DNA of 64,000 nt from Luteimonas colneyensis (lineage in GTDB: Bacteria > Pseudomonadota > Gammaproteobacteria > Xanthomonadales > Xanthomonadaceae). The notes beneath the pieces were generated by a model. It ran no database searches. It was not told the origin of the DNA and saw nothing but the letters and a program-made list of their open reading frames with translations. The position numbers and the translations under genes were made by a program. Numbering within the stretch: the first letter of the stretch is position 1; each line of letters begins with the position of its first letter. Positions 19,828 to 27,380 of this stretch are shown piece after piece. Location of the stretch: NCBI RefSeq assembly GCF_014836665.1, contig NZ_JACSQJ010000001.1, forward strand, positions 62,001 through 126,000, given 5' to 3'.

Positions 19828-20484
19828 TCAGGTTGCGGGCGTCGCGAAGCGGCCCATGGCGTTGGCGATGGTGCAGAAGAGCTGGGCGGTGCGTTCGGTG
19901 TCGTAGACGGCCGAGTGCGCGTCTTCGCTGTTCCAGTCCAGGCCGGCCGCCTGCACGGCGCGCGCGAGCACCGTTTGCCCGTAGGCCAGGCCGGCCATGG
20001 TTACGGTGTCGAACACGCTGAAGGGATGGAAGGGGTTGCGCTTGTGGCCGCTGCGGGCGACCGCGGCGTTGAGGAAGTTGAGGTCGAAGTGGGCGTTGTG
20101 CCCGACCAGGATCGCGCGCTGGCAACCGTGCTTCTTCACCGCGGCCCGCACGGCGGTAAACACGTGCTCCAGCGCGTCCTTCTCCGGCTTGGCGAAGCGG
20201 AAGGGATGGTCGAGGTCGATGCCGGTGACCTGCAGCGACTTCGGGTCGATCTCGGTGCCCGGCGCGGGCACCAGGTGCGCGCTGGCGCCTTCGCCAGGGA
20301 CGTAGCGGCCGTTTGCGTCGAGGTCGATGGGCAGCACCGCGATCTCCAGCAGCGCGTGACGGTTCCAGTCGAAGCCACCGGTCTCCACGTCCACCACCAC
20401 CGGCAGGTAGCCGCGGAAGCGGGCGGACATGGGCGCGAAGGCGGGCGTGGCCTCGGGGGCCTGGGGCGGGAGCGGGCTGGTCAC
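19828..20484 (-). CDS. rnt: Ribonuclease T
   Basis: A DEDD-family 3'-5' exoribonuclease that trims tRNA and 5S/23S rRNA 3' ends. Motif ExoI is [21 protein letters not shown], ExoII is [15 protein letters not shown] and ExoIII is [16 protein letters not shown]. The [13 protein letters not shown] block is typical of RNase T rather than of DNA polymerase epsilon. Start choice: GTG at 20484 gives 218 aa with a Pro-rich N-terminus; ATG at 20430 gives 200 aa. I prefer the GTG because it leaves E. coli-like length before RFRGYLPVV, but confidence is modest. It starts about 10 nt after hvfC on the same strand, so it may be cotranscribed with the hvf genes. Confidence 0.9.
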
Positions 20485-20494
20485 CGGCGCTAGT

Positions 20495-21316
20495 CTAGCC
20501 GAGCACGGCGCCGGCCCCGCCATCGTCGCTGTCGCACCGGACGCCGGCCACGATGCCTTCGTGGTGCCAGCGCAGCAGCATGGCGGTCCCCTCCCGGAGG
20601 AAGCCCGCATCGGCGGCTGCGCCGGCTTCGGCGGCGAGCGCCTCCAGCTGCGCACGGCCGCCGAGGGTCGGCGCTTCGTCCAGGCGTTGCAGCAGTCGCC
20701 AGGCCAGGGGGCTGGGCGAATGGAAGCGCACCCGGCCGCCAGCGTCGCGGTGCAGCAGGAGCAGGGTCGGCGCCGGAGGCGGCGCAGCCGGCAGGAATCC
20801 CGGGCCGATCCGGTGCACGGGCCAGGCGTAGGCCAGCGGCCAGGCCAGCGGCGACAGCAGCGGCCGGCCGTCCAGCAGCGCGGCGGCGGCGTCGATGCCG
20901 GGGGCGTCGAGCCGGTCGTGCGCGATGTCGTCCACCGTCGCTTCGCTGATCTGCAGCGCCAGTTCGATCCATTCGTAGTGCGCCAGCTCGGGCAGCCAGG
21001 GCTCATGGCCGTCGCTGTCCTCCACCCAGCGCAGGAACTCGCGCGGGAGCTCGGGAAACAGCGGCGTGCGGCAGCCGTGGTCGCGGTAGAAGGCGCGCAC
21101 CATCGCCGGCCAGGCGTCGCCGCGGATGCGGCGGATCACCGGGAAGTTGCCGGCGAGCAGGCGCGAGACGTTGTTGAAGAAGAGGTCGCGGTAGACCTGC
21201 ATGCGCCGCGGGTCGATGCCGGGCGGCGGCGGATGCCGGTCGGGGTCGCGGATGTGCGCGCTGAACGCGTCCTGCTGCGCGCGCAGGGCGTTACCGGCCG
21301 CCAGCGTGTCCTGCAC
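20495..21316 (-). CDS. hvfC: HvfC/BufC-type RiPP maturation partner (DUF2063 N-terminal domain)
   Basis: A 273-aa protein. The N-terminal ~90 residues match the DUF2063 'putative DNA-binding' domain ([41 protein letters not shown]). This domain is now known as the partner that binds the precursor peptide and helps the MNIO enzyme in HvfB/C- and BufB/C-type systems. The C-terminal half is less conserved. The GTG start at 21316 lies 2 nt after the hvfB stop, and no ATG is available. It is the third gene of an A-B-C RiPP cassette; the former DNA-binding annotation of the family should be disregarded. Confidence 0.88.
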
Positions 21317-21317
21317 G

Positions 21318-22184
21318 TCAGGCCGCCCGGCTGCGCGCCGGCGCGCCGGCGAGGTGGCCGCGCACGACCGCGAGCTCGCCCAGCAGTTCTTCGAAGGGCG
21401 GGAAGTCGAAGTCGCGCTCGAGCAGGGTCGGGCGCGGCCCGACCAGCGCATAGGCTTCGGCCAGCAGCTGCCAGACCGGATCGGCCACCGCGGCGCCGTG
21501 GGTGTCGATCTTGAGGCCGGGGGCTTCGTCGCGGTGCCCGGCGACGTGGATGCAGGCCACGCGCGCGCCCGGCAGGCCGCGCAGGAACGCGCTGGCGTCG
21601 TAGCCGTGATTGGTGGCGTTGACGATGATGTTGTTGACGTCCAGCAGCAGGTCGCAGTCGGCCTCGGCGAGCACGGCGTTGATGAACTCGAGTTCGGTCA
21701 GCGGCCTCGCGTCCGTGCCGGTCGCCGGGACCGTCGCGTAGTAGGAGATGTTCTCCACCGCGATCCTGCGTCCGAGCACGTCCTGCGCGCGGCGGATGCG
21801 CGCCGACACGTGGTGCACGGCTTCGTCGCTGAAGGGCAGGGGCAGCAGGTCGTAGAGCTGGCCGAAGCTGTCGCCGCAGGCGCTGAGGTGCTCGCTGTAG
21901 AGCGCGGCGCGGTGCGCGTCGAGGAAGCGGCGCAGCGTGTGCAGGAAGGTGTCGTCGAGGGGGGCGGGACCGCCCAGCGACAGCGAGAGGCCGTGGCAGG
22001 CCAGCGGATGCTCCGATGCCAGCCGGGCGAAGGCCTCGCCCGGCGCGCCGCCGACGCCGATCCAGTTCTCCGGGGCGGCCTCGAGGAAATCGAAGCTGCC
22101 GGCGGGCGCCGCGAGCAGGTCCTGCAGCAGCGCGCGCCGCAGGCCGAGGCCGACGGCGCGGGTGGGCAGCGGGGCGACGGTCAT
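21318..22184 (-). CDS. hvfB: MNIO-family (DUF692) multinuclear non-heme iron RiPP maturase HvfB/BufB
   Basis: A 288-aa TIM-barrel enzyme of the DUF692/MbnB superfamily. Expected metal-ligand positions are intact: Glu in [11 protein letters not shown], His in [10 protein letters not shown], Glu-His in [10 protein letters not shown], Glu-Asn in IAVENISYY, Asp-Asn in [16 protein letters not shown], His residues in [11 protein letters not shown], Asp/His in [14 protein letters not shown] and Glu in [10 protein letters not shown]. Characterised relatives convert precursor Cys residues to oxazolone/thioamide or thiooxazole groups that bind copper. The ATG at 22184 was chosen; an in-frame GTG lies at 22190. 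It is downstream of a Cys-motif precursor and upstream of hvfC, so its substrate is almost certainly the adjacent peptide. Confidence 0.93.
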
Positions 22185-22229
22185 GGCCACGCGAAGCGCG
22201 GCACGCCGCGCCCGGGATCCATCAGGGAC

Positions 22230-22670
22230 TCAGGCCGCGCCGCCGCAGGCGCCGGAGCCACCGCACTTGCCTTCGCCGCACTTGCCCTCGTGGGCGGCCT
22301 TGTCGGCCTCGTCGGTCTGGTCGCTGGAGGCTTTGGGGGCAGCGTGGTGCGCGTCGTGCTCGGCCTTGTCGATGAACCCATCGCCGTTGACATCGATGCC
22401 GGCGAAATAGGACGGATCCTTCTCGGGATGGGCGGCGCCGAACTCGGCGGCCGAGATCCGGCCGTCGCCGTCGCTGTCGCTGCGATCCATGCCGCAGCGG
22501 CCTTCCCCGTCCTTGGCCACGGCCGGCGTGTCCGCGACGGGCGCATCCTGGGCGGCGAGCATGTAGCCGCCCGCGAGCGGCGCCATCGAGAACGCGGCGC
22601 CCGACAGCGCGATGCCGCCGAGGGCGGTGGCCATGGCCAGGGCAACGGGCTTGGCGGTTGACTTCGACAT
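22230..22670 (-). CDS. hvfA: HvfA/bufferin-like RiPP precursor with two EF-hand loops
   Basis: A 146-aa precursor with a long Sec signal peptide (about residues 1-40, containing the AFSMAPLAGGYMLA segment typical of this family). Cys residues are at 59, 131, 136 and 142. Three are in EGxCG motifs (EGRCG at 56-60, then tandem EGKCG at 128-137) and the fourth is in GACGG. Between them lie two canonical 12-residue EF-hand loops, Asp65-Glu76 (DSDGDGRISAAE) and Asp93-Glu104 (DVNGDGFIDKAE), implying calcium binding. A His-rich EHDAHHA stretch follows. GAGGAA precedes the ATG by about 8 nt. In characterised HvfA/bufferins the EGKCG cysteines become copper(I)-binding heterocycles; whether the EGRCG site is also modified is unknown. 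Confidence 0.88.
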   Translation of the reverse strand: MSKSTAKPVALAMATALGGIALSGAAFSMAPLAGGYMLAAQDAPVADTPAVAKDGEGRCGMDRSDSDGDGRISAAEFGAAHPEKDPSYFAGIDVNGDGFIDKAEHDAHHAAPKASSDQTDEADKAAHEGKCGEGKCGGSGACGGAA

Positions 22671-22705
22671 CTTGGCGTTCCTCGGAGGGCGGCGGACGGC
22701 CGCGG

Positions 22706-22734
22706 GGACGCCAGTATGCAGCAGCCCCGTTCAC
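22706..22734 (-). promoter_or_regulatory. Candidate ECF-type promoter of the hvfABC cassette
   Basis: In the 91-nt gap between phoU and hvfA the minus strand carries GTGAAC (22729-22734), about 18 nt from CGTCC (22706-22710). This resembles ECF sigma-factor promoters (AAC in the -35, CGTC-like in the -10). A sigma-70-like CATACT (22713-22718) is also present without a good -35. Weak evidence; no sigma factor gene is nearby. Confidence 0.3.
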
Positions 22735-22761
22735 GCCGCGTCGACGCCGCAGGGAGCGCCG

Positions 22762-23466
22762 TCAGGTCGTCGTATTGGTGTCGTCGGCCTTCTCGCGAGG
22801 CGGCAGGTTGTCCTCGCCGCGCACCATGAACCAGATGTTCTCGGCGATGTTGGTGGCGTGGTCGCCGATGCGCTCGAGGTTCTTGGCCATGAACAGCAGG
22901 TGGGTGCAGCCGGTGATCGCGCGCGCGTCCTCCATCATGTAGGTCAGGAGTTCGCGGAACAGGCGCGTGTACTCGGCGTCGAGCGCGGCGTCGCGGTCGC
23001 GGACCGCCTGCGCGGCCTCGGGATCGTGGTTGACGTAGGCCTCGAGCACGTCGCGCACTTGGCGCACGGCCAGCGCGCCGACGTGCTTCAGGCCGCTGGC
23101 AACGGGCAGCGCCGGCGCCTGGTTCAGCGCGATCGAGCGCTTGGCGATGTTGGCGGCGTAGTCGCCGATGCGCTCGATGTCGGACACGATGCGCAGCGCG
23201 GCCAGGATCTCGCGCAGGTCGCGCGCCAGCGGCCCGCGCAGCGAGAGCTTCATGGCGTCGTGGCTGACCTCGCGCTCGAGCGCGTCGATCGCCTCGTCGT
23301 TGGCGACGATGTGGCCGGCGGCGCGGTCGTCGCGGCGTTCCACCACGTCCAGCGCGGCCTCGAGCTGGGCGACGGCAAGCTCGCCCATGCGCAGGATCTC
23401 GCCGATCAGGCGCTGGCGCTCCTCGTCGTGGCTGCGGACGATGTGGTCGTTGGGGGTGTTGTTCAT
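22762..23466 (-). CDS. phoU: Phosphate signalling complex protein PhoU
   Basis: A 234-aa protein of paired three-helix bundles. It has the two conserved metal-cluster motifs: [16 protein letters not shown] and [20 protein letters not shown]. PhoU links the PstSCAB transporter to the PhoR kinase and represses the Pho regulon when phosphate is plentiful. The ATG at 23466 overlaps the pstB stop (ATGA). It is the last gene of the pst operon. Confidence 0.97.
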
Positions 23467-24338
23467 CCGAACCGTCCGGTGATGTAGTCCTCGGTCTGCT
23501 GCTTCGAGGGATTGGAGAAGATGGTCTCGGTCGTATCGTGCTCGATCAGGTCGCCGAGGTACATGAAGGCGGTGTAATCCGAGACGCGCGCGGCCTGCTG
23601 CATGTTGTGGGTCACGATCACGATCGTGTAGTCGACCTTGAGTTCCTCGATCAGCTGCTCGATGCGGCTTGTCGAGATCGGGTCCAGCGCCGAGGTCGGC
23701 TCGTCGAGAAGCAGCACCTCGGGCTTCAGCGCCACCGCGCGGGCGATGCACAGGCGCTGCTGCTGCCCGCCCGACAGGCCCAGCGCGCTCTGGCCCAGCT
23801 TGTCCTTGACCTCATCCCAGAGCGCGCCCTGGCGCAGCGCCGATTCCACGCGCGCGTCCATCTCGCTCTTCGACAGCTTCTCGTGGTGGCGGATGGCGTA
23901 GGCGATGTTCTCGTAGATCGTCATCGGGAACGGCACCGGCTTCTGGAACACCATGCCGACCTTCGAGCGCAGGCGGTTCATCGGGTATTTCGGCGACAGG
24001 ATGTCCTCGCCGTCGAGCAGGATGCTGCCGCTGGCCACCTGGCCCGGGTACAGGGCGTAGATGCGGTTGAACACGCGCAGCAGCGTCGACTTTCCGCAGC
24101 CCGACGGCCCGATCAGCGCGGTCACGCGCTTCTCCGGGATCTGCATCGCCACGCCCTTGATCGCGTGGAACCTGCCGTAGTGGAAGTCCAGGCCGCGCAC
24201 CGAGAGCTTCACCGGCGCGGTTTCGCCCGCAGGCCTGCGCGGCGTGGGCGTGGCAAGCCGGGCGCGTCCATATTCGGTGGCGGCGGCGGCGGGAGCGTCG
24301 TTCATCGGAAGGGTCCAGGATTGGGTCGGATCAGTCAT
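23463..24338 (-). CDS. pstB: Phosphate ABC transporter ATP-binding protein PstB
   Basis: A 291-aa ABC ATPase. Walker A is GPSGCGKST, the signature is LSGGQQQR and Walker B is [13 protein letters not shown], with the PstB-specific ending [12 protein letters not shown]. The N-terminus is about 35 residues longer than in E. coli. The ATG at 24338 overlaps the pstA end by 8 nt; an in-frame ATG at 24305 would shorten it by 11 residues. Confidence 0.97.
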
Positions 24339-25197
24339 GGGTGACGCGCTTGCGGAGCAGCAGGGCGCGCGCGCCGAGGCTGATGAGGAGCACGAAGGTG
24401 GTGAGCACCAGGGCGCCGGCCCAGGCCAGCTGCTGCCAGGTCTCGTAGGGGCTGCCGGCGAACTGGTACATCACCACCGGCACGCTGGCCATCGGCTGCA
24501 TGACGTTGCTGTTCCAGTACAGGTTGCCGAAGGCGGTGAACAGCAGCGGCGCGGTCTCGCCGCTGATGCGCGCCAGCGACAGCAGGATGCCGGTGACGAT
24601 GCCGGCCGAGGCGCTGCGGTAGAGCACCTGGACGATCACCTTCCACTGCGGCACGCCCAGCGACAGCGCCGCCTCGCGCATCTGCGCCGGCACCAGCCGC
24701 AGCATCTCGTCGGTGGTGCGCAGTACCACCGGCAGCACGATGAAGGCGAGCGCCACGGCGCCGGCGAAGGCGGAGAAGCTGCCGCCGGTGTTCATCACCA
24801 GCAGGGTGTAGACGAACAGGCCGAGTACGATCGAGGGTGCCGACAGCAGGATGTCGTTGACGAAGCGCACGACCGTGGCCGCGCGGCTCGCCGCGCCGTA
24901 CTCGGCCAGCCAGGTACCCGCTGCCACGCCCAGCGGCGCGCCGATCACGATCGCCAGTCCGCACATCACCGCCGAGCCGAACAGCGCGTTGCGCAGGCCG
25001 CCTTCGGCCATCGGCGGCGGGGTGTCCTTCGTGAACAGTTCCCAGTTGATCCCGGTGATGCCCTTGGACACCAGGGTCCACAGGATCCAGCCCAGGAACA
25101 GCAGGCCGACGACCGCGGCCACGCAGGACAGCGTGAGCGCCAGGACATTGGTGATGCGGCGGCGCAGGTACAGCCGCTCGGAGACCAGGGCGGACAT
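24331..25197 (-). CDS. pstA: Phosphate ABC transporter permease PstA
   Basis: A 288-aa inner-membrane permease with about six transmembrane segments. The EAA-like cytoplasmic loop [20 protein letters not shown] contacts PstB. The [13 protein letters not shown] block is characteristic of PstA. The ATG at 25197 overlaps the pstC stop (TGATG), and pstB follows with an 8-nt overlap. Confidence 0.96.
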
Positions 25198-26165
25198 CAG
25201 TTGCCCTCCCGGCGCGCCAGCCGCGCGAGCATCAGCCGCGCCAGCGCCAGCACCACGAAGGTCACGATGAAGAGGACGAAGCCGAGCAGCAGCAGCGCCG
25301 ACCGGTAGGTCTCGGTGGCTTCGCCGAAGTCGTTGGCGATCAGCGCGGCGATGGTGGTGCCGGGTTCGAGCAGCGAGGGGGTCAGGCGCACGCTGTTGCC
25401 GACCACGAAGGCCACGGCCATGGTCTCGCCCAGCGCGCGGCCGAGGCCGAGGAACACGCCGCCGATGACCGCCGAGCGGGTGTAGGGCAGGACGATGTCC
25501 CAGCACACCTCCCAGCGCGTGGCGCCGAGCGCGTAGGCGGATTCCTTCAGCCGCGTGGGCACGGTCAGGAAGACCTCGCGCATCACGGAGGTGATGAAGG
25601 GCACCACCATGATCGCCAGCACCAGGCCGGCGGTCAGCACGCCGATGCCCAGCGGCGGGCCCTGGAACAGGATGCCGACGCCGGGGATCGTCCCGAGGTG
25701 CTCGTTGAGCCAGGGCGTCACGTGGCGGGTCATCACCGGCACCAGCACGAACAGGCCCCACATGCCGTAGATGATCGACGGGATGCCGGCCAGCAGCTCG
25801 ATCGCCGCGCTCACCGGTCCGCGCAGCCAGCGCGGCGCCACTTCGGTCAGGAACACCGCGATGCCGAAGCTCACCGGCACCGCGAGCAACATGGCGATGA
25901 CGGCGGTGACCACGGTGCCGTAGATCGGCGCCAGCGCGCCGTACCGGTTCTCCACCGGATTCCATTCCGCGGAGAAGAAGAACGACAGGCCCTGCGACTG
26001 CAGGGCCTCGCGGCCGCCCCAGAGCATCGAGAGCATGGCGCTGGCCAGGGCCAGCAGCACGAACACGACGGTGCCGAAGAGGGCGTAGCGGAACCAGCGG
26101 TCGGCGCGTGCGTCGCGGAGGTCGCGGCGGCCGGGCGCGGAGGCGGTCAGGGCGGTGGCGTTCAT
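25197..26165 (-). CDS. pstC: Phosphate ABC transporter permease PstC
   Basis: A 322-aa permease with about six membrane spans, the second transmembrane subunit beside PstA. Its landmarks are ELLAGIPSIIYGMWGLFVL, the EAA-like KESAYALGATRWEVCW loop and LGRALGETMAVAFVVGN. It follows pstS after a 54-nt gap that holds a stable hairpin. Confidence 0.96.
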   Translation of the reverse strand: MNATALTASAPGRRDLRDARADRWFRYALFGTVVFVLLALASAMLSMLWGGREALQSQGLSFFFSAEWNPVENRYGALAPIYGTVVTAVIAMLLAVPVSFGIAVFLTEVAPRWLRGPVSAAIELLAGIPSIIYGMWGLFVLVPVMTRHVTPWLNEHLGTIPGVGILFQGPPLGIGVLTAGLVLAIMVVPFITSVMREVFLTVPTRLKESAYALGATRWEVCWDIVLPYTRSAVIGGVFLGLGRALGETMAVAFVVGNSVRLTPSLLEPGTTIAALIANDFGEATETYRSALLLLGFVLFIVTFVVLALARLMLARLARREGN

Positions 26166-26187
26166 CGGTGTCCCGGGGACTGGAGGA

Positions 26188-26211
26188 TGCCCGCCGCGGG
26201 TGCGGCGGGCA
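26188..26211 (-). promoter_or_regulatory. Intergenic hairpin between pstS and pstC
   Basis: A 10-bp stem, TGCCCGCCGC (26188-26197) and GCGGCGGGCA (26202-26211), has a four-base loop and no T-run. It directly follows the pstS stop. By analogy with other binding-protein genes, it may stabilise the pstS 3' end and reduce read-through, so that more PstS than permease is made. Inferred from position only. Confidence 0.5.
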
Positions 26212-26219
26212 CGGTCGCC

Positions 26220-27302
26220 TTACTGGCCCTGCTGGAACTCGGCGGCCCAGTACGCCTCGATCTGCTGCACGAGCTCGGCGGGCAGCGGCACGTAGTGCAG
26301 CTCGCTGGCCTGGGCCTGGCCCTCTTCGAAGGCCCACTTGAAGAACTCCAGCGCGGCCTTGCTGCGCGACGGGTCCTTCGGCTGCTTCGGCATCAGCATG
26401 AAGTTGGTCGCGGTGATCGGCCAGGACTCGGCGCCCGGGGCGTTGGTGATGACGAGGTTGAAGTCGCTGGCCGAGGCCCAGTCCGCGGTGCGCGCGGCGG
26501 CGGCGAAGCTTTCGGCGCTGGGTTCGACGAAGTTGCCCTCGGCGTTCTGCAGCGAGGCGTAGGGCATGGTGTTCTGCAGCGCATAGGCCAGCTCGACGTA
26601 GCCGATCGCGCCCTGGATCTGCTGCACGTAGGAGGCCACGCCCTCGTTGCCCTTGCCGCCGACGCCAAGCGGCCACGACACCGAGGTGCCTTCGCCGACC
26701 TGCGCCTTCCAGTCGGCGCTGACCTTGGACAGGTAGTTGGTGAAGTTGAAGCTGGTGCCGGAGCCGTCGGAGCGGTGGACGATGCTGATCTTGCCGTCGG
26801 GCAGGGCCAGACCGGGGTTCAGGCCGGCGATCTCGGGCGCGTTCCAGGTCGTGACCTTGCCCAGGAAGATGTCGGCCAGCAGTGGCCCGGTGAGCTTCAG
26901 CGCACCGGGCGCCAGGCCTTCGATGTTCACCACGGGCACCACGCCGCCGATGGCCGACGGGAACTGGCCGAGGTTGGCCTCCGCGAGCTCCTCGCTCGAC
27001 AGCGGCTTGTCGCTGGAGCCGAAATCGACGGTGCCGGCCTTGACCTGGGCGATGCCGCCGCCGGAGCCGATGGACTGGTAGTTGACCTGGCGGCCGGTGG
27101 CGGCGTTGTAGTCGGCCGACCACTTCGAGACCAGCGGGTAGATGAACGAGGCGCCCGCGCCGGACACCTGGGTGGCGACGCGCTCGCCCGCGGCATCCGC
27201 GCCGGCCGTGGCCGAAGGGTCGCCCGAGGGCTGGCAGGCCGCGACGAACAGCGCCGAGGCGAGGGCGAGCGAAGCGATTCGCAGCTTGGGGAAGGTGGTC
27301 AT
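26220..27302 (-). CDS. pstS: Phosphate ABC transporter substrate-binding protein PstS
   Basis: A 360-aa periplasmic phosphate-binding protein. The N-terminus has a lipobox-like LFVAAC at about residue 23, suggesting a lipoprotein. Phosphate-binding landmarks are VSGAGASFIYPLVSKW, SIGSGGGIAQVKAG, FGSSDKPLSSEEL, HRSDGSGTSFNFTNYLSKV and the EGVASYVQQIQGAIGYVEL block. It is the first gene of pstSCAB-phoU, and a triple Pho box lies about 50-80 nt upstream. Confidence 0.97.
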   Translation of the reverse strand: MTTFPKLRIASLALASALFVAACQPSGDPSATAGADAAGERVATQVSGAGASFIYPLVSKWSADYNAATGRQVNYQSIGSGGGIAQVKAGTVDFGSSDKPLSSEELAEANLGQFPSAIGGVVPVVNIEGLAPGALKLTGPLLADIFLGKVTTWNAPEIAGLNPGLALPDGKISIVHRSDGSGTSFNFTNYLSKVSADWKAQVGEGTSVSWPLGVGGKGNEGVASYVQQIQGAIGYVELAYALQNTMPYASLQNAEGNFVEPSAESFAAAARTADWASASDFNLVITNAPGAESWPITATNFMLMPKQPKDPSRSKAALEFFKWAFEEGQAQASELHYVPLPAELVQQIEAYWAAEFQQGQ

Positions 27303-27351: not shown

Positions 27352-27380
27352 ATGATGTTTTTATGACAGCTTCATGACGA
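27352..27380 (-). promoter_or_regulatory. Triple Pho box upstream of pstS
   Basis: On the minus strand three heptamers sit exactly 11 bp apart: TCGTCAT (27374-27380), CTGTCAT (27363-27369, a perfect consensus half-site) and ACATCAT (27352-27358). A T/A-rich AAAA spacer separates the last two. PhoB dimers bind tandem CTGTCAT repeats with 11-bp period, so this is a PhoB activation site for pstSCAB-phoU. It lies about 50 nt before the pstS ATG. Confidence 0.85.

What the first reader, a model, noticed from the sequence alone, without database searches (positions are those of the whole stretch)
20495..22670. MNIO RiPP cassette hvfABC with an EF-hand-containing precursor
The maturase (DUF692, full set of His/Glu/Asp/Asn ligands) and DUF2063 partner follow a secreted 146-aa precursor. 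Unlike a plain Cys-rich tail peptide, it has two canonical EF-hand loops (65-76, 93-104) with one EGRCG motif before them and tandem EGKCG motifs after. This suggests a peptide coupling calcium binding to copper(I) binding by modified cysteines. HvfA- and bufferin-type copper peptides are known, but I am not aware of a characterised EF-hand version.
Basis: partly seen in the sequence, partly recalled or inferred. Interest (0 to 1): 0.8.

Follow-up and report, generated by a model that had tools for sequence, protein, structure and literature searches.

The report
EF-hand copper-peptide precursor with maturation enzymes
A Luteimonas-like bacterium carries genes for a small exported protein that pairs two calcium-binding loops with copper-binding-type cysteine motifs, a conserved member of a class already spotted by computer in 2025 but apparently not yet tested at the bench.

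Summary
At 20495-22670 (minus strand) lies hvfA-hvfB-hvfC: a 146-aa exported-looking precursor with EGRCG, two canonical EF-hand loops (65-76, 93-104), tandem EGKCGEGKCG and a fourth Cys; an HvfB-type MNIO maturase; and an HvfC partner. EGKCG|EF-hand chimaeric precursors were described in silico by Antoine et al. 2025 (PMC12452194), who also suggested a Ca2+ role; I found no bench work in the library searched.

New here: (i) the EF pair is conserved, in 45 of 114 distinct HvfB-linked precursors, two loops or none, with dN/dS 0.23 versus 0.93 in a nearby linker. (ii) Cys motifs lie on both sides of the EF pair (44 of 45 upstream, 44 of 45 downstream), not only N-terminal as that paper's text says. 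(iii) The last upstream Cys sits exactly 6 residues before the first Ca2+ ligand in 62 of 73 sequences; the downstream distance varies.

Most likely: a periplasmic Cu(I) peptide carrying 5-thiooxazoles on a Ca2+-folded scaffold.

The parts
22230..22670 (-). hvfA-like precursor, 146 aa, EGxCG motifs flanking an EF-hand pair
22587..22670 (-). Sec-type signal peptide (aa 1-28, presumed cleavage after AFS), presumed to double as leader
   Evidence: read from the sequence and the 45-row alignment; no signal-peptide predictor run; the leader role is from PMC13419390 passages
22563..22568 (-). Gly35-Tyr36 just after the presumed cleavage site
   Evidence: 45 of 45 EF-type precursors
22491..22505 (-). 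EGRCG motif (aa 56-60); Cys59 lies 6 residues before the first Ca2+ ligand
22443..22478 (-). EF-hand loop 1 (aa 65-76, DSDGDGRISAAE)
22359..22394 (-). EF-hand loop 2 (aa 93-104, DVNGDGFIDKAE)
22260..22289 (-). tandem EGKCGEGKCG (aa 128-137), the most conserved Cys block
   Evidence: invariant in the 18 rows of alignment A1; EGKCGEG after the EF pair in 44 of 45
22239..22256 (-). SGACGG (aa 139-144), fourth Cys; same or similar tail in L083, L084, L085, L074
21318..22190 (-). hvfB, MNIO maturase (GTG start; ATG at 22184 also possible)
   Evidence: NF003818 385.6 bits, PF05114 318.3 bits; best solved chain 3bww_A, E 3.4e-66; the only PF05114 match in the genome
20495..21316 (-). hvfC, DUF2063/NGO1945_C partner protein (start re-assigned to GTG 21316)
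   Evidence: NF050145 269.7 bits, PF09836, PF22106
22762..23466 (-). phoU, 91 bp upstream of hvfA, after pst-type transporter genes on the same strand
   Evidence: PhoU domain 148.4 bits; gap
22713..22719 (-). GCATACT, -10-like element kept in the closest relatives
   Evidence: in 14 of 55 phoU-linked rows (duplicates included), 13 of them from the window's own clade

Best explanation
A chromosomal hvfABC cassette that makes a two-metal periplasmic protein. The precursor is made in the cytoplasm, where free Ca2+ is too low for its EF hands to fold. HvfC helps to bind its signal/leader and HvfB converts EGxCG cysteines to 5-thiooxazoles (the C-terminal tandem most likely, the lone EGRCG less surely). 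Sec exports it, the signal is removed, periplasmic Ca2+ folds the EF pair, and the thiooxazole arms on either side bind Cu(I), the upstream one being held at a fixed distance from Ca2+ site 1. Shown here: gene content, family membership, conservation, flanking layout, fixed spacing, purifying selection. Inferred from studied relatives: thiooxazole chemistry, signal as leader, Cu(I) binding. Inferred only: Ca2+-dependent folding after export and its influence on copper.
For: HvfB and HvfC score over curated cut-offs and the precursor over the EGKCG repeat-domain cut-off. EF pair in 45 of 114 distinct HvfB-linked precursors, 69 with no loop, none with one. Ligand positions D65, E76, D93, E104 45 of 45; D or N at 67, 69, 95, 97 45 of 45 (partly by construction, as the set was chosen by a loop pattern). 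dN/dS: EF pair 0.23, C-tail 0.26, signal 0.22, linker 42-55 0.93 (8 Luteimonas-clade rows). Cys between Gly-Tyr and loop 1 in 44 of 45 and after loop 2 in 44 of 45. Last upstream Cys 6 residues before loop 1 in 62 of 73, downstream distance 9-27. All 30 order-level loci read (L144-L173, the window's own among them) have two EF loops, Cys on both sides and an adjacent HvfB gene. FonBC modified a two-repeat substrate, tolerated Arg at position 3 and at position 5 took only Gly or Ala among the double variants (PMC13097082 section 12); the tandem here fits.
Against: I found no wet data on any EF-type member. FonBC did not modify a one-repeat substrate, so the lone EGRCG may stay unmodified. EF hands are dispensable: 5 of 46 phoU-linked loci have EGKCG-only precursors. 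L132 has no upstream Cys and L051 no downstream Cys. The HvfA equivalog model scores 15.1 against a cut-off of 95. No DoxX gene in the cluster; the genome's only PF07681 match is on another contig. 38 of 120 related genomes searched have no HvfB match at all. No structure could be predicted.
Confidence: 0.6

Rival explanations
1. Same copper RiPP, but the EF pair is only a Ca2+-stabilised spacer or solubility domain that keeps Cu-loaded arms from aggregating; no coupling between the metals.
For: Fontiphorin, an EGKCG peptide, precipitated on Cu loading (PMC13097082 section 11). EF-less precursors go with HvfB in 5 of 46 phoU-linked and 64 of 68 other distinct loci.
Against: The Cys-to-loop-1 distance is 6 in 62 of 73 while the downstream arm varies; a plain spacer would not need that. 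Shared descent could also explain it.
Confidence: 0.27
2. The protein is mainly a Ca2+ sensor or buffer of the envelope (EfhP-like), and the Cys motifs serve redox sensing or anchoring.
For: Antoine et al. suggest Ca2+ homeostasis or signalling as an additional role (PMC12452194). The genome has other EF-hand proteins, some secreted-looking.
Against: The tandem EGKCGEGKCG stays after the EF pair in 44 of 45, and an HvfB gene is next to all 30 order-level loci read. EF-less members exist, while each of the 45 EF-bearing members has at least 2 Cys in its mature part.
Confidence: 0.08
3. The EF pair binds lanthanides (lanmodulin-like) rather than Ca2+.
For: Best match of the precursor profile among sequences of solved structures is lanmodulin 6mi5_X, E 8e-9; the loops are closely spaced (27 start to start).
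Against: No Pro at loop position 2 (Ser66, Val94); 16 residues between loops rather than 12-13 (PMC10232371 passage); no PQQ alcohol dehydrogenase over cut-off in the genome (two weak matches); another EF protein of this genome has similarly close loops (L137).
Confidence: 0.03
4. The EF loops are chance or decaying sequence without function.
For: None found.
Against: Two loops in 0 of 200,000 shuffles; dN/dS 0.23; ligands conserved.
Confidence: 0.01

Closest known systems
[quoted passage not shown] 2025, PMC12452194; abstract, passages, sections 15 and 20 seen)
   Same: Exported precursor, short EGKCG region without 17-residue repeats, two EF-hand_5 motifs, associated with MNIO genes
   Different: That text puts the EF hands at the C-terminus of the EGKCG domain; here and in 44 of 45 EF-type rows a further EGKCGEG tail follows them. 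Its figures and supplements were not seen.
Oxazolin HvfA/HvfBC of Haemophilus influenzae (PMC13419390; passages and section 23 seen)
   Same: HvfB and HvfC families over cut-off; EGKCG cysteines; exported precursor
   Different: HvfA has three AEGKCGEGKCG motifs and the operon also holds the DoxX-like HvfX; the HvfA equivalog model is not met here
Fontiphorin and other 'captophorins', FonABC (PMC13097082; passages and sections 11-13 seen)
   Same: EGKCG repeats made into 5-thiooxazoles by an MNIO plus PME1 partner; binds Cu
   Different: FonA has seven modification sites; EF-hand does not occur in the main text
Lanmodulin (PDB 6mi5, 8fns; PMC10232371, one passage seen)
   Same: Nearest EF-hand sequence among solved structures; closely spaced loops
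   Different: No Pro at position 2, 16 rather than 12-13 residues between loops; Cys motifs and MNIO context here

Membership tests
HvfA/EGKCG (oxazolin, captophorin) precursors | EGKCG repeats | tested here: met
   NF050137 23.4 bits, cut-off 19.5
HvfA/EGKCG (oxazolin, captophorin) precursors | Adjacent HvfB-family MNIO | tested here: met
   NF003818 385.6 bits, cut-off 360
HvfA/EGKCG (oxazolin, captophorin) precursors | Adjacent HvfC / DUF2063 partner | tested here: met
   NF050145 269.7 bits, cut-off 142
HvfA/EGKCG (oxazolin, captophorin) precursors | N-terminal Sec signal peptide | tested here: inconclusive
   Read by eye and conserved in the alignments; no predictor was run
HvfA/EGKCG (oxazolin, captophorin) precursors | 5-thiooxazole on Cys; Cu(I) binding | not testable with these tools
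   Needs mass spectrometry and Cu titration
HvfA equivalog proper (NF050188) | Full-length HvfA model over cut-off | tested here: not met
   15.1 bits, cut-off 95
H. influenzae-type hvf operon | DoxX-like HvfX in the operon | tested here: not met
   Only PF07681 match in the genome is on another contig, C10
Buf_EGKC|EF-hand_5 chimaera | Two EF-hand_5 motifs | tested here: met
   PF13202 33.7 bits, cut-off 25.9, two stretches
Buf_EGKC|EF-hand_5 chimaera | Short EGKCG region N-terminal to the EF hands | tested here: met
   One EGRCG at 56-60; the authors' own profile is not available here
Buf_EGKC|EF-hand_5 chimaera | EF hands form the C-terminal part (as worded in the paper) | tested here: not met
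   EGKCGEG tail after the EF pair, here and in 44 of 45 rows; probably an incomplete wording, not another class
Bufferins Buf1 (DUF2282) | DUF2282 domain | tested here: not met
   No such hit up to E 1
Lanmodulin | Pro at EF loop position 2 and 12-13 residues between loops | tested here: not met
   Ser66 and Val94; 16 residues
XopAW effectors (NF041410) | Full-length model over cut-off | tested here: not met
   25.5 bits, cut-off 120, best stretch aa 65-116, the EF pair

The most novel reading that the evidence does not exclude
A heterobimetallic RiPP protein with built-in allostery: a modified Cys locked six residues before Ca2+ site 1 makes copper binding depend on Ca2+ occupancy, so that the peptide is inert and export-competent in the Ca2+-poor cytoplasm and becomes a copper clamp only in the envelope. 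This would be a two-metal switch built from a backbone-modified cysteine and an EF hand.
Probability: 0.18. Interest if true: 0.75.

Novelty: new member of a known kind. Interest (0 to 1): 0.42.

Why it matters
MNIO-made copper peptides are a young and very large family, and at least one tested EGKCG-repeat peptide precipitates with copper (PMC13097082). The EF-hand kind is conserved and frequent in one bacterial family, and could give a folded, tractable protein in which thiooxazole-copper chemistry can be studied. If Ca2+ gates copper binding, it would explain how a sticky metallophore is kept harmless until it is outside the cytoplasm.

Tried and rejected
Structure prediction of the EF-type precursor: switched off, so the idea that the EF fold brings both Cys arms together is untested; because the two loops are only 27-28 residues apart start to start, the geometry of a normal EF pair cannot be assumed.

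Single clade of EF-bearing rows on the maturase tree: rejected (p-AU 2.5e-6, after one unfinished run; at least 10 changes on the quick tree), although the junction is alike nearly everywhere. Repeated loss, or swapping of precursors, fits better than many independent fusions, but this is inference. The careful tree did not finish.

Lanthanide reading: the nearest solved relative by sequence is lanmodulin, but two of its marks fail and no PQQ alcohol dehydrogenase is over cut-off.

Phosphate control: Pho-box-like sites lie at 27352-27380 before the pstS-like gene, but 3 matches against 1.99 expected in the window is weak (30 of 100 shuffles reached 3). No consensus terminator or sigma-70 promoter was found in 20300-23600, so read-through from phoU is possible, not shown. 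The link of EF hands with phoU (41 of 46 phoU-linked loci, 4 of 68 others) is confounded by descent, and loci L001-L031 had only about 1.5 kb of flank, so phoU could have been missed.

A quick pattern for the Gly-Tyr element over all precursors gave only 62 of 113; that pattern was tied to position and to guessed starts, so I claim invariance only for the 45 EF-type rows.

Sampling and dropped rows. Of the HvfB matches (82 of 120 relatives have one, 77 over the cut-off) the best match of each of 30 genomes came as loci and 50 more places were fetched, among them the window's own and two under the cut-off; other matches under the cut-off were not fetched. With L001 and the 53 named loci this makes 134. 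Ten were duplicates of named or own loci and ten had no precursor found, leaving 114; one more (L134) had no usable start and is missing from the 113 used for sequence extraction. In the class-wide search, 4 precursors with two EF loops (L176, L178, L180, L181) had no HvfB-like gene in the fetched flanks of about 1.5 kb; all four genomes have an MNIO elsewhere.

My first count of relatives with a sigma-factor gene before hvfA was too low (7 of 8 looked at, where only the five longest frames were printed); the recount is.

Full report
What is there. On the minus strand three genes follow each other: a 146-aa precursor (22230-22670), a DUF692/MNIO enzyme (21318-22190) and a DUF2063 protein (20495-21316 by the likely start). 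The enzyme is over the NCBIfam cut-off for the HvfB family (385.6 against 360) and under that of the bufferin maturase model (260.4, cut-off 310); the partner is over the HvfC cut-off (269.7 against 142). The precursor has a signal-like N-terminus, EGRCG at 56-60, EF loops at 65-76 and 93-104, EGKCGEGKCG at 128-137 and a fourth Cys at 142. Two EF loops arose in 0 of 200,000 shuffles. The genome has one MNIO match and one match to the EGKCG repeat domain. The closest named relatives are Luteimonas; the HvfB of L. padinae is 94% identical over residues 1-280.

Conservation. After removing 10 duplicates and 10 without a visible precursor, 114 remain; 45 precursors carry two EF loops, 69 carry none, and none carries one. 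In the 45, the loop ligands are nearly invariant and Gly35-Tyr36 after the signal is invariant. The set was picked by a loop pattern, so part of that invariance is by construction; the two-or-none split is less so. Within eight Luteimonas-clade sequences dN/dS is 0.23 for the EF pair, 0.26 for the C-tail and 0.93 for the linker before EGRCG.

Layout. Cys stand on both sides of the EF pair: upstream in 44 of 45 (not L132) and downstream in 44 of 45 (not L051). Antoine et al. (PMC12452194; abstract, passages, sections 15 and 20 seen) describe such chimaeras with the EF hands at the C-terminus of the EGKCG part; I did not see their figures or supplements. In 73 sequences (the 45 rows and others from the order and class, after removing like cores) the last upstream Cys is exactly 6 residues before the first Asp of loop 1 in 62, with a hydrophobic residue at -4 in all 62; the distance from loop 2 to the next Cys ranges from 9 to 27 in 71, and 2 have none. 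The upstream motif thus looks built into the first EF hand, the tail looks like a loose arm. Shared descent weakens this as evidence of function.

Spread. In 398 genomes of the order the profile of EF-type precursors (A2) matched 193 at E 1e-6, but this includes ordinary EF-hand proteins and EGKCG-only precursors; about 50 genomes have a match over nearly the whole profile in one piece (my own count from the listing). All 30 loci read (L144-L173, the window's own among them) have two EF loops and Cys on both sides and an HvfB gene, and 28 have phoU. Outside the order, in the class-wide sample of 369 genomes, a few have the same kind of layout, for example L175-L180; L176, L178 and L180 lie apart from any HvfB gene in the flanks read, but their genomes have an MNIO elsewhere. 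On the HvfB tree the EF-bearing rows are not one clade.

Surroundings. The cassette follows pst-type transporter genes and phoU on the same strand (Pfam: PBP_like_2, two BPD_transp_1, ABC_tran, PhoU), 91 bp after phoU; phoU is upstream in 41 of 45 EF-type loci. In ten relatives the gap between phoU and hvfA exceeds 700 bp, and all ten hold a sigma-factor-like gene there or close by (two confirmed as ECF-type by Pfam). A like gene is found in four more of the 114 distinct loci, three of them with EF-less precursors (L009, L026, L100) and one EF-type (L008), so it is not a mark of the EF type; its place in those four was not checked. The window's clade lacks it and keeps a -10-like element instead. 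No DoxX gene is in the cluster.

How it probably works. HvfBC of H. influenzae turns EGKCG cysteines into 5-thiooxazoles and does so far better when the signal sequence is present (PMC13419390 passages). FonBC modified a two-repeat but not a one-repeat substrate (PMC13097082 section 12). By these rules the tandem tail here should be modified; the lone EGRCG and SGACGG are uncertain. Products of this type bind Cu (PMC13097082 section 11). The EF pair should be empty in the cytoplasm and filled in the periplasm, which would keep the precursor open for modification and export and fold it afterwards; this rests on general knowledge of Ca2+ levels (recalled) and is not tested here.

Known or new. 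The class is in print as an in silico finding with a guessed Ca2+ role; searches for MNIO/DUF692, HvfA, bufferin and captophorin, with EF-hand or calcium, listed no bench study of it in the open library, which lacks most subscription papers. So this is a good, conserved member of a known kind, with two refinements: motifs on both sides and a fixed Cys-to-loop spacing.

Noticed in passing
L063, L087-L091, L093-L096, near hvfA and after phoU: A sigma-factor-like gene (ECF-type by Pfam in L087 and L093) lies before hvfA in these ten relatives with a long phoU-hvfA gap, suggesting stress control; not found in the window's clade.
   Followed up: partly
22762-27302 and 27352-27380: pst-type transporter genes and phoU directly upstream of hvfABC, with weak Pho-box-like sites before the pstS-like gene; the same order is frequent in this bacterial family.
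   Followed up: partly
L176, L178, L180, L181: Precursors with two EF loops and EGKCG-like Cys motifs but no HvfB-like gene in the fetched flanks; their genomes have an MNIO elsewhere, so modification in trans is possible.
   Followed up: partly
L009 and L051 (both from genome G066): One genome with two HvfB loci: the phoU-linked one has an EGKCG-only precursor, the other an EF-type precursor with no Cys after the EF pair.
   Followed up: no
window 22341-22358 (aa 105-110): His-rich stretch HDAHHA right after EF loop 2 (H105 in 19 of 44, H108 in 28 of 45, H109 in 30 of 45 EF-type rows) could add metal ligands.
   Followed up: no
L137 (G000:C8:90906-90968): Another small secreted-looking EF-hand protein of the same genome with similarly close loops but no EGKCG motifs, a possible source of the EF pair.
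   Followed up: no
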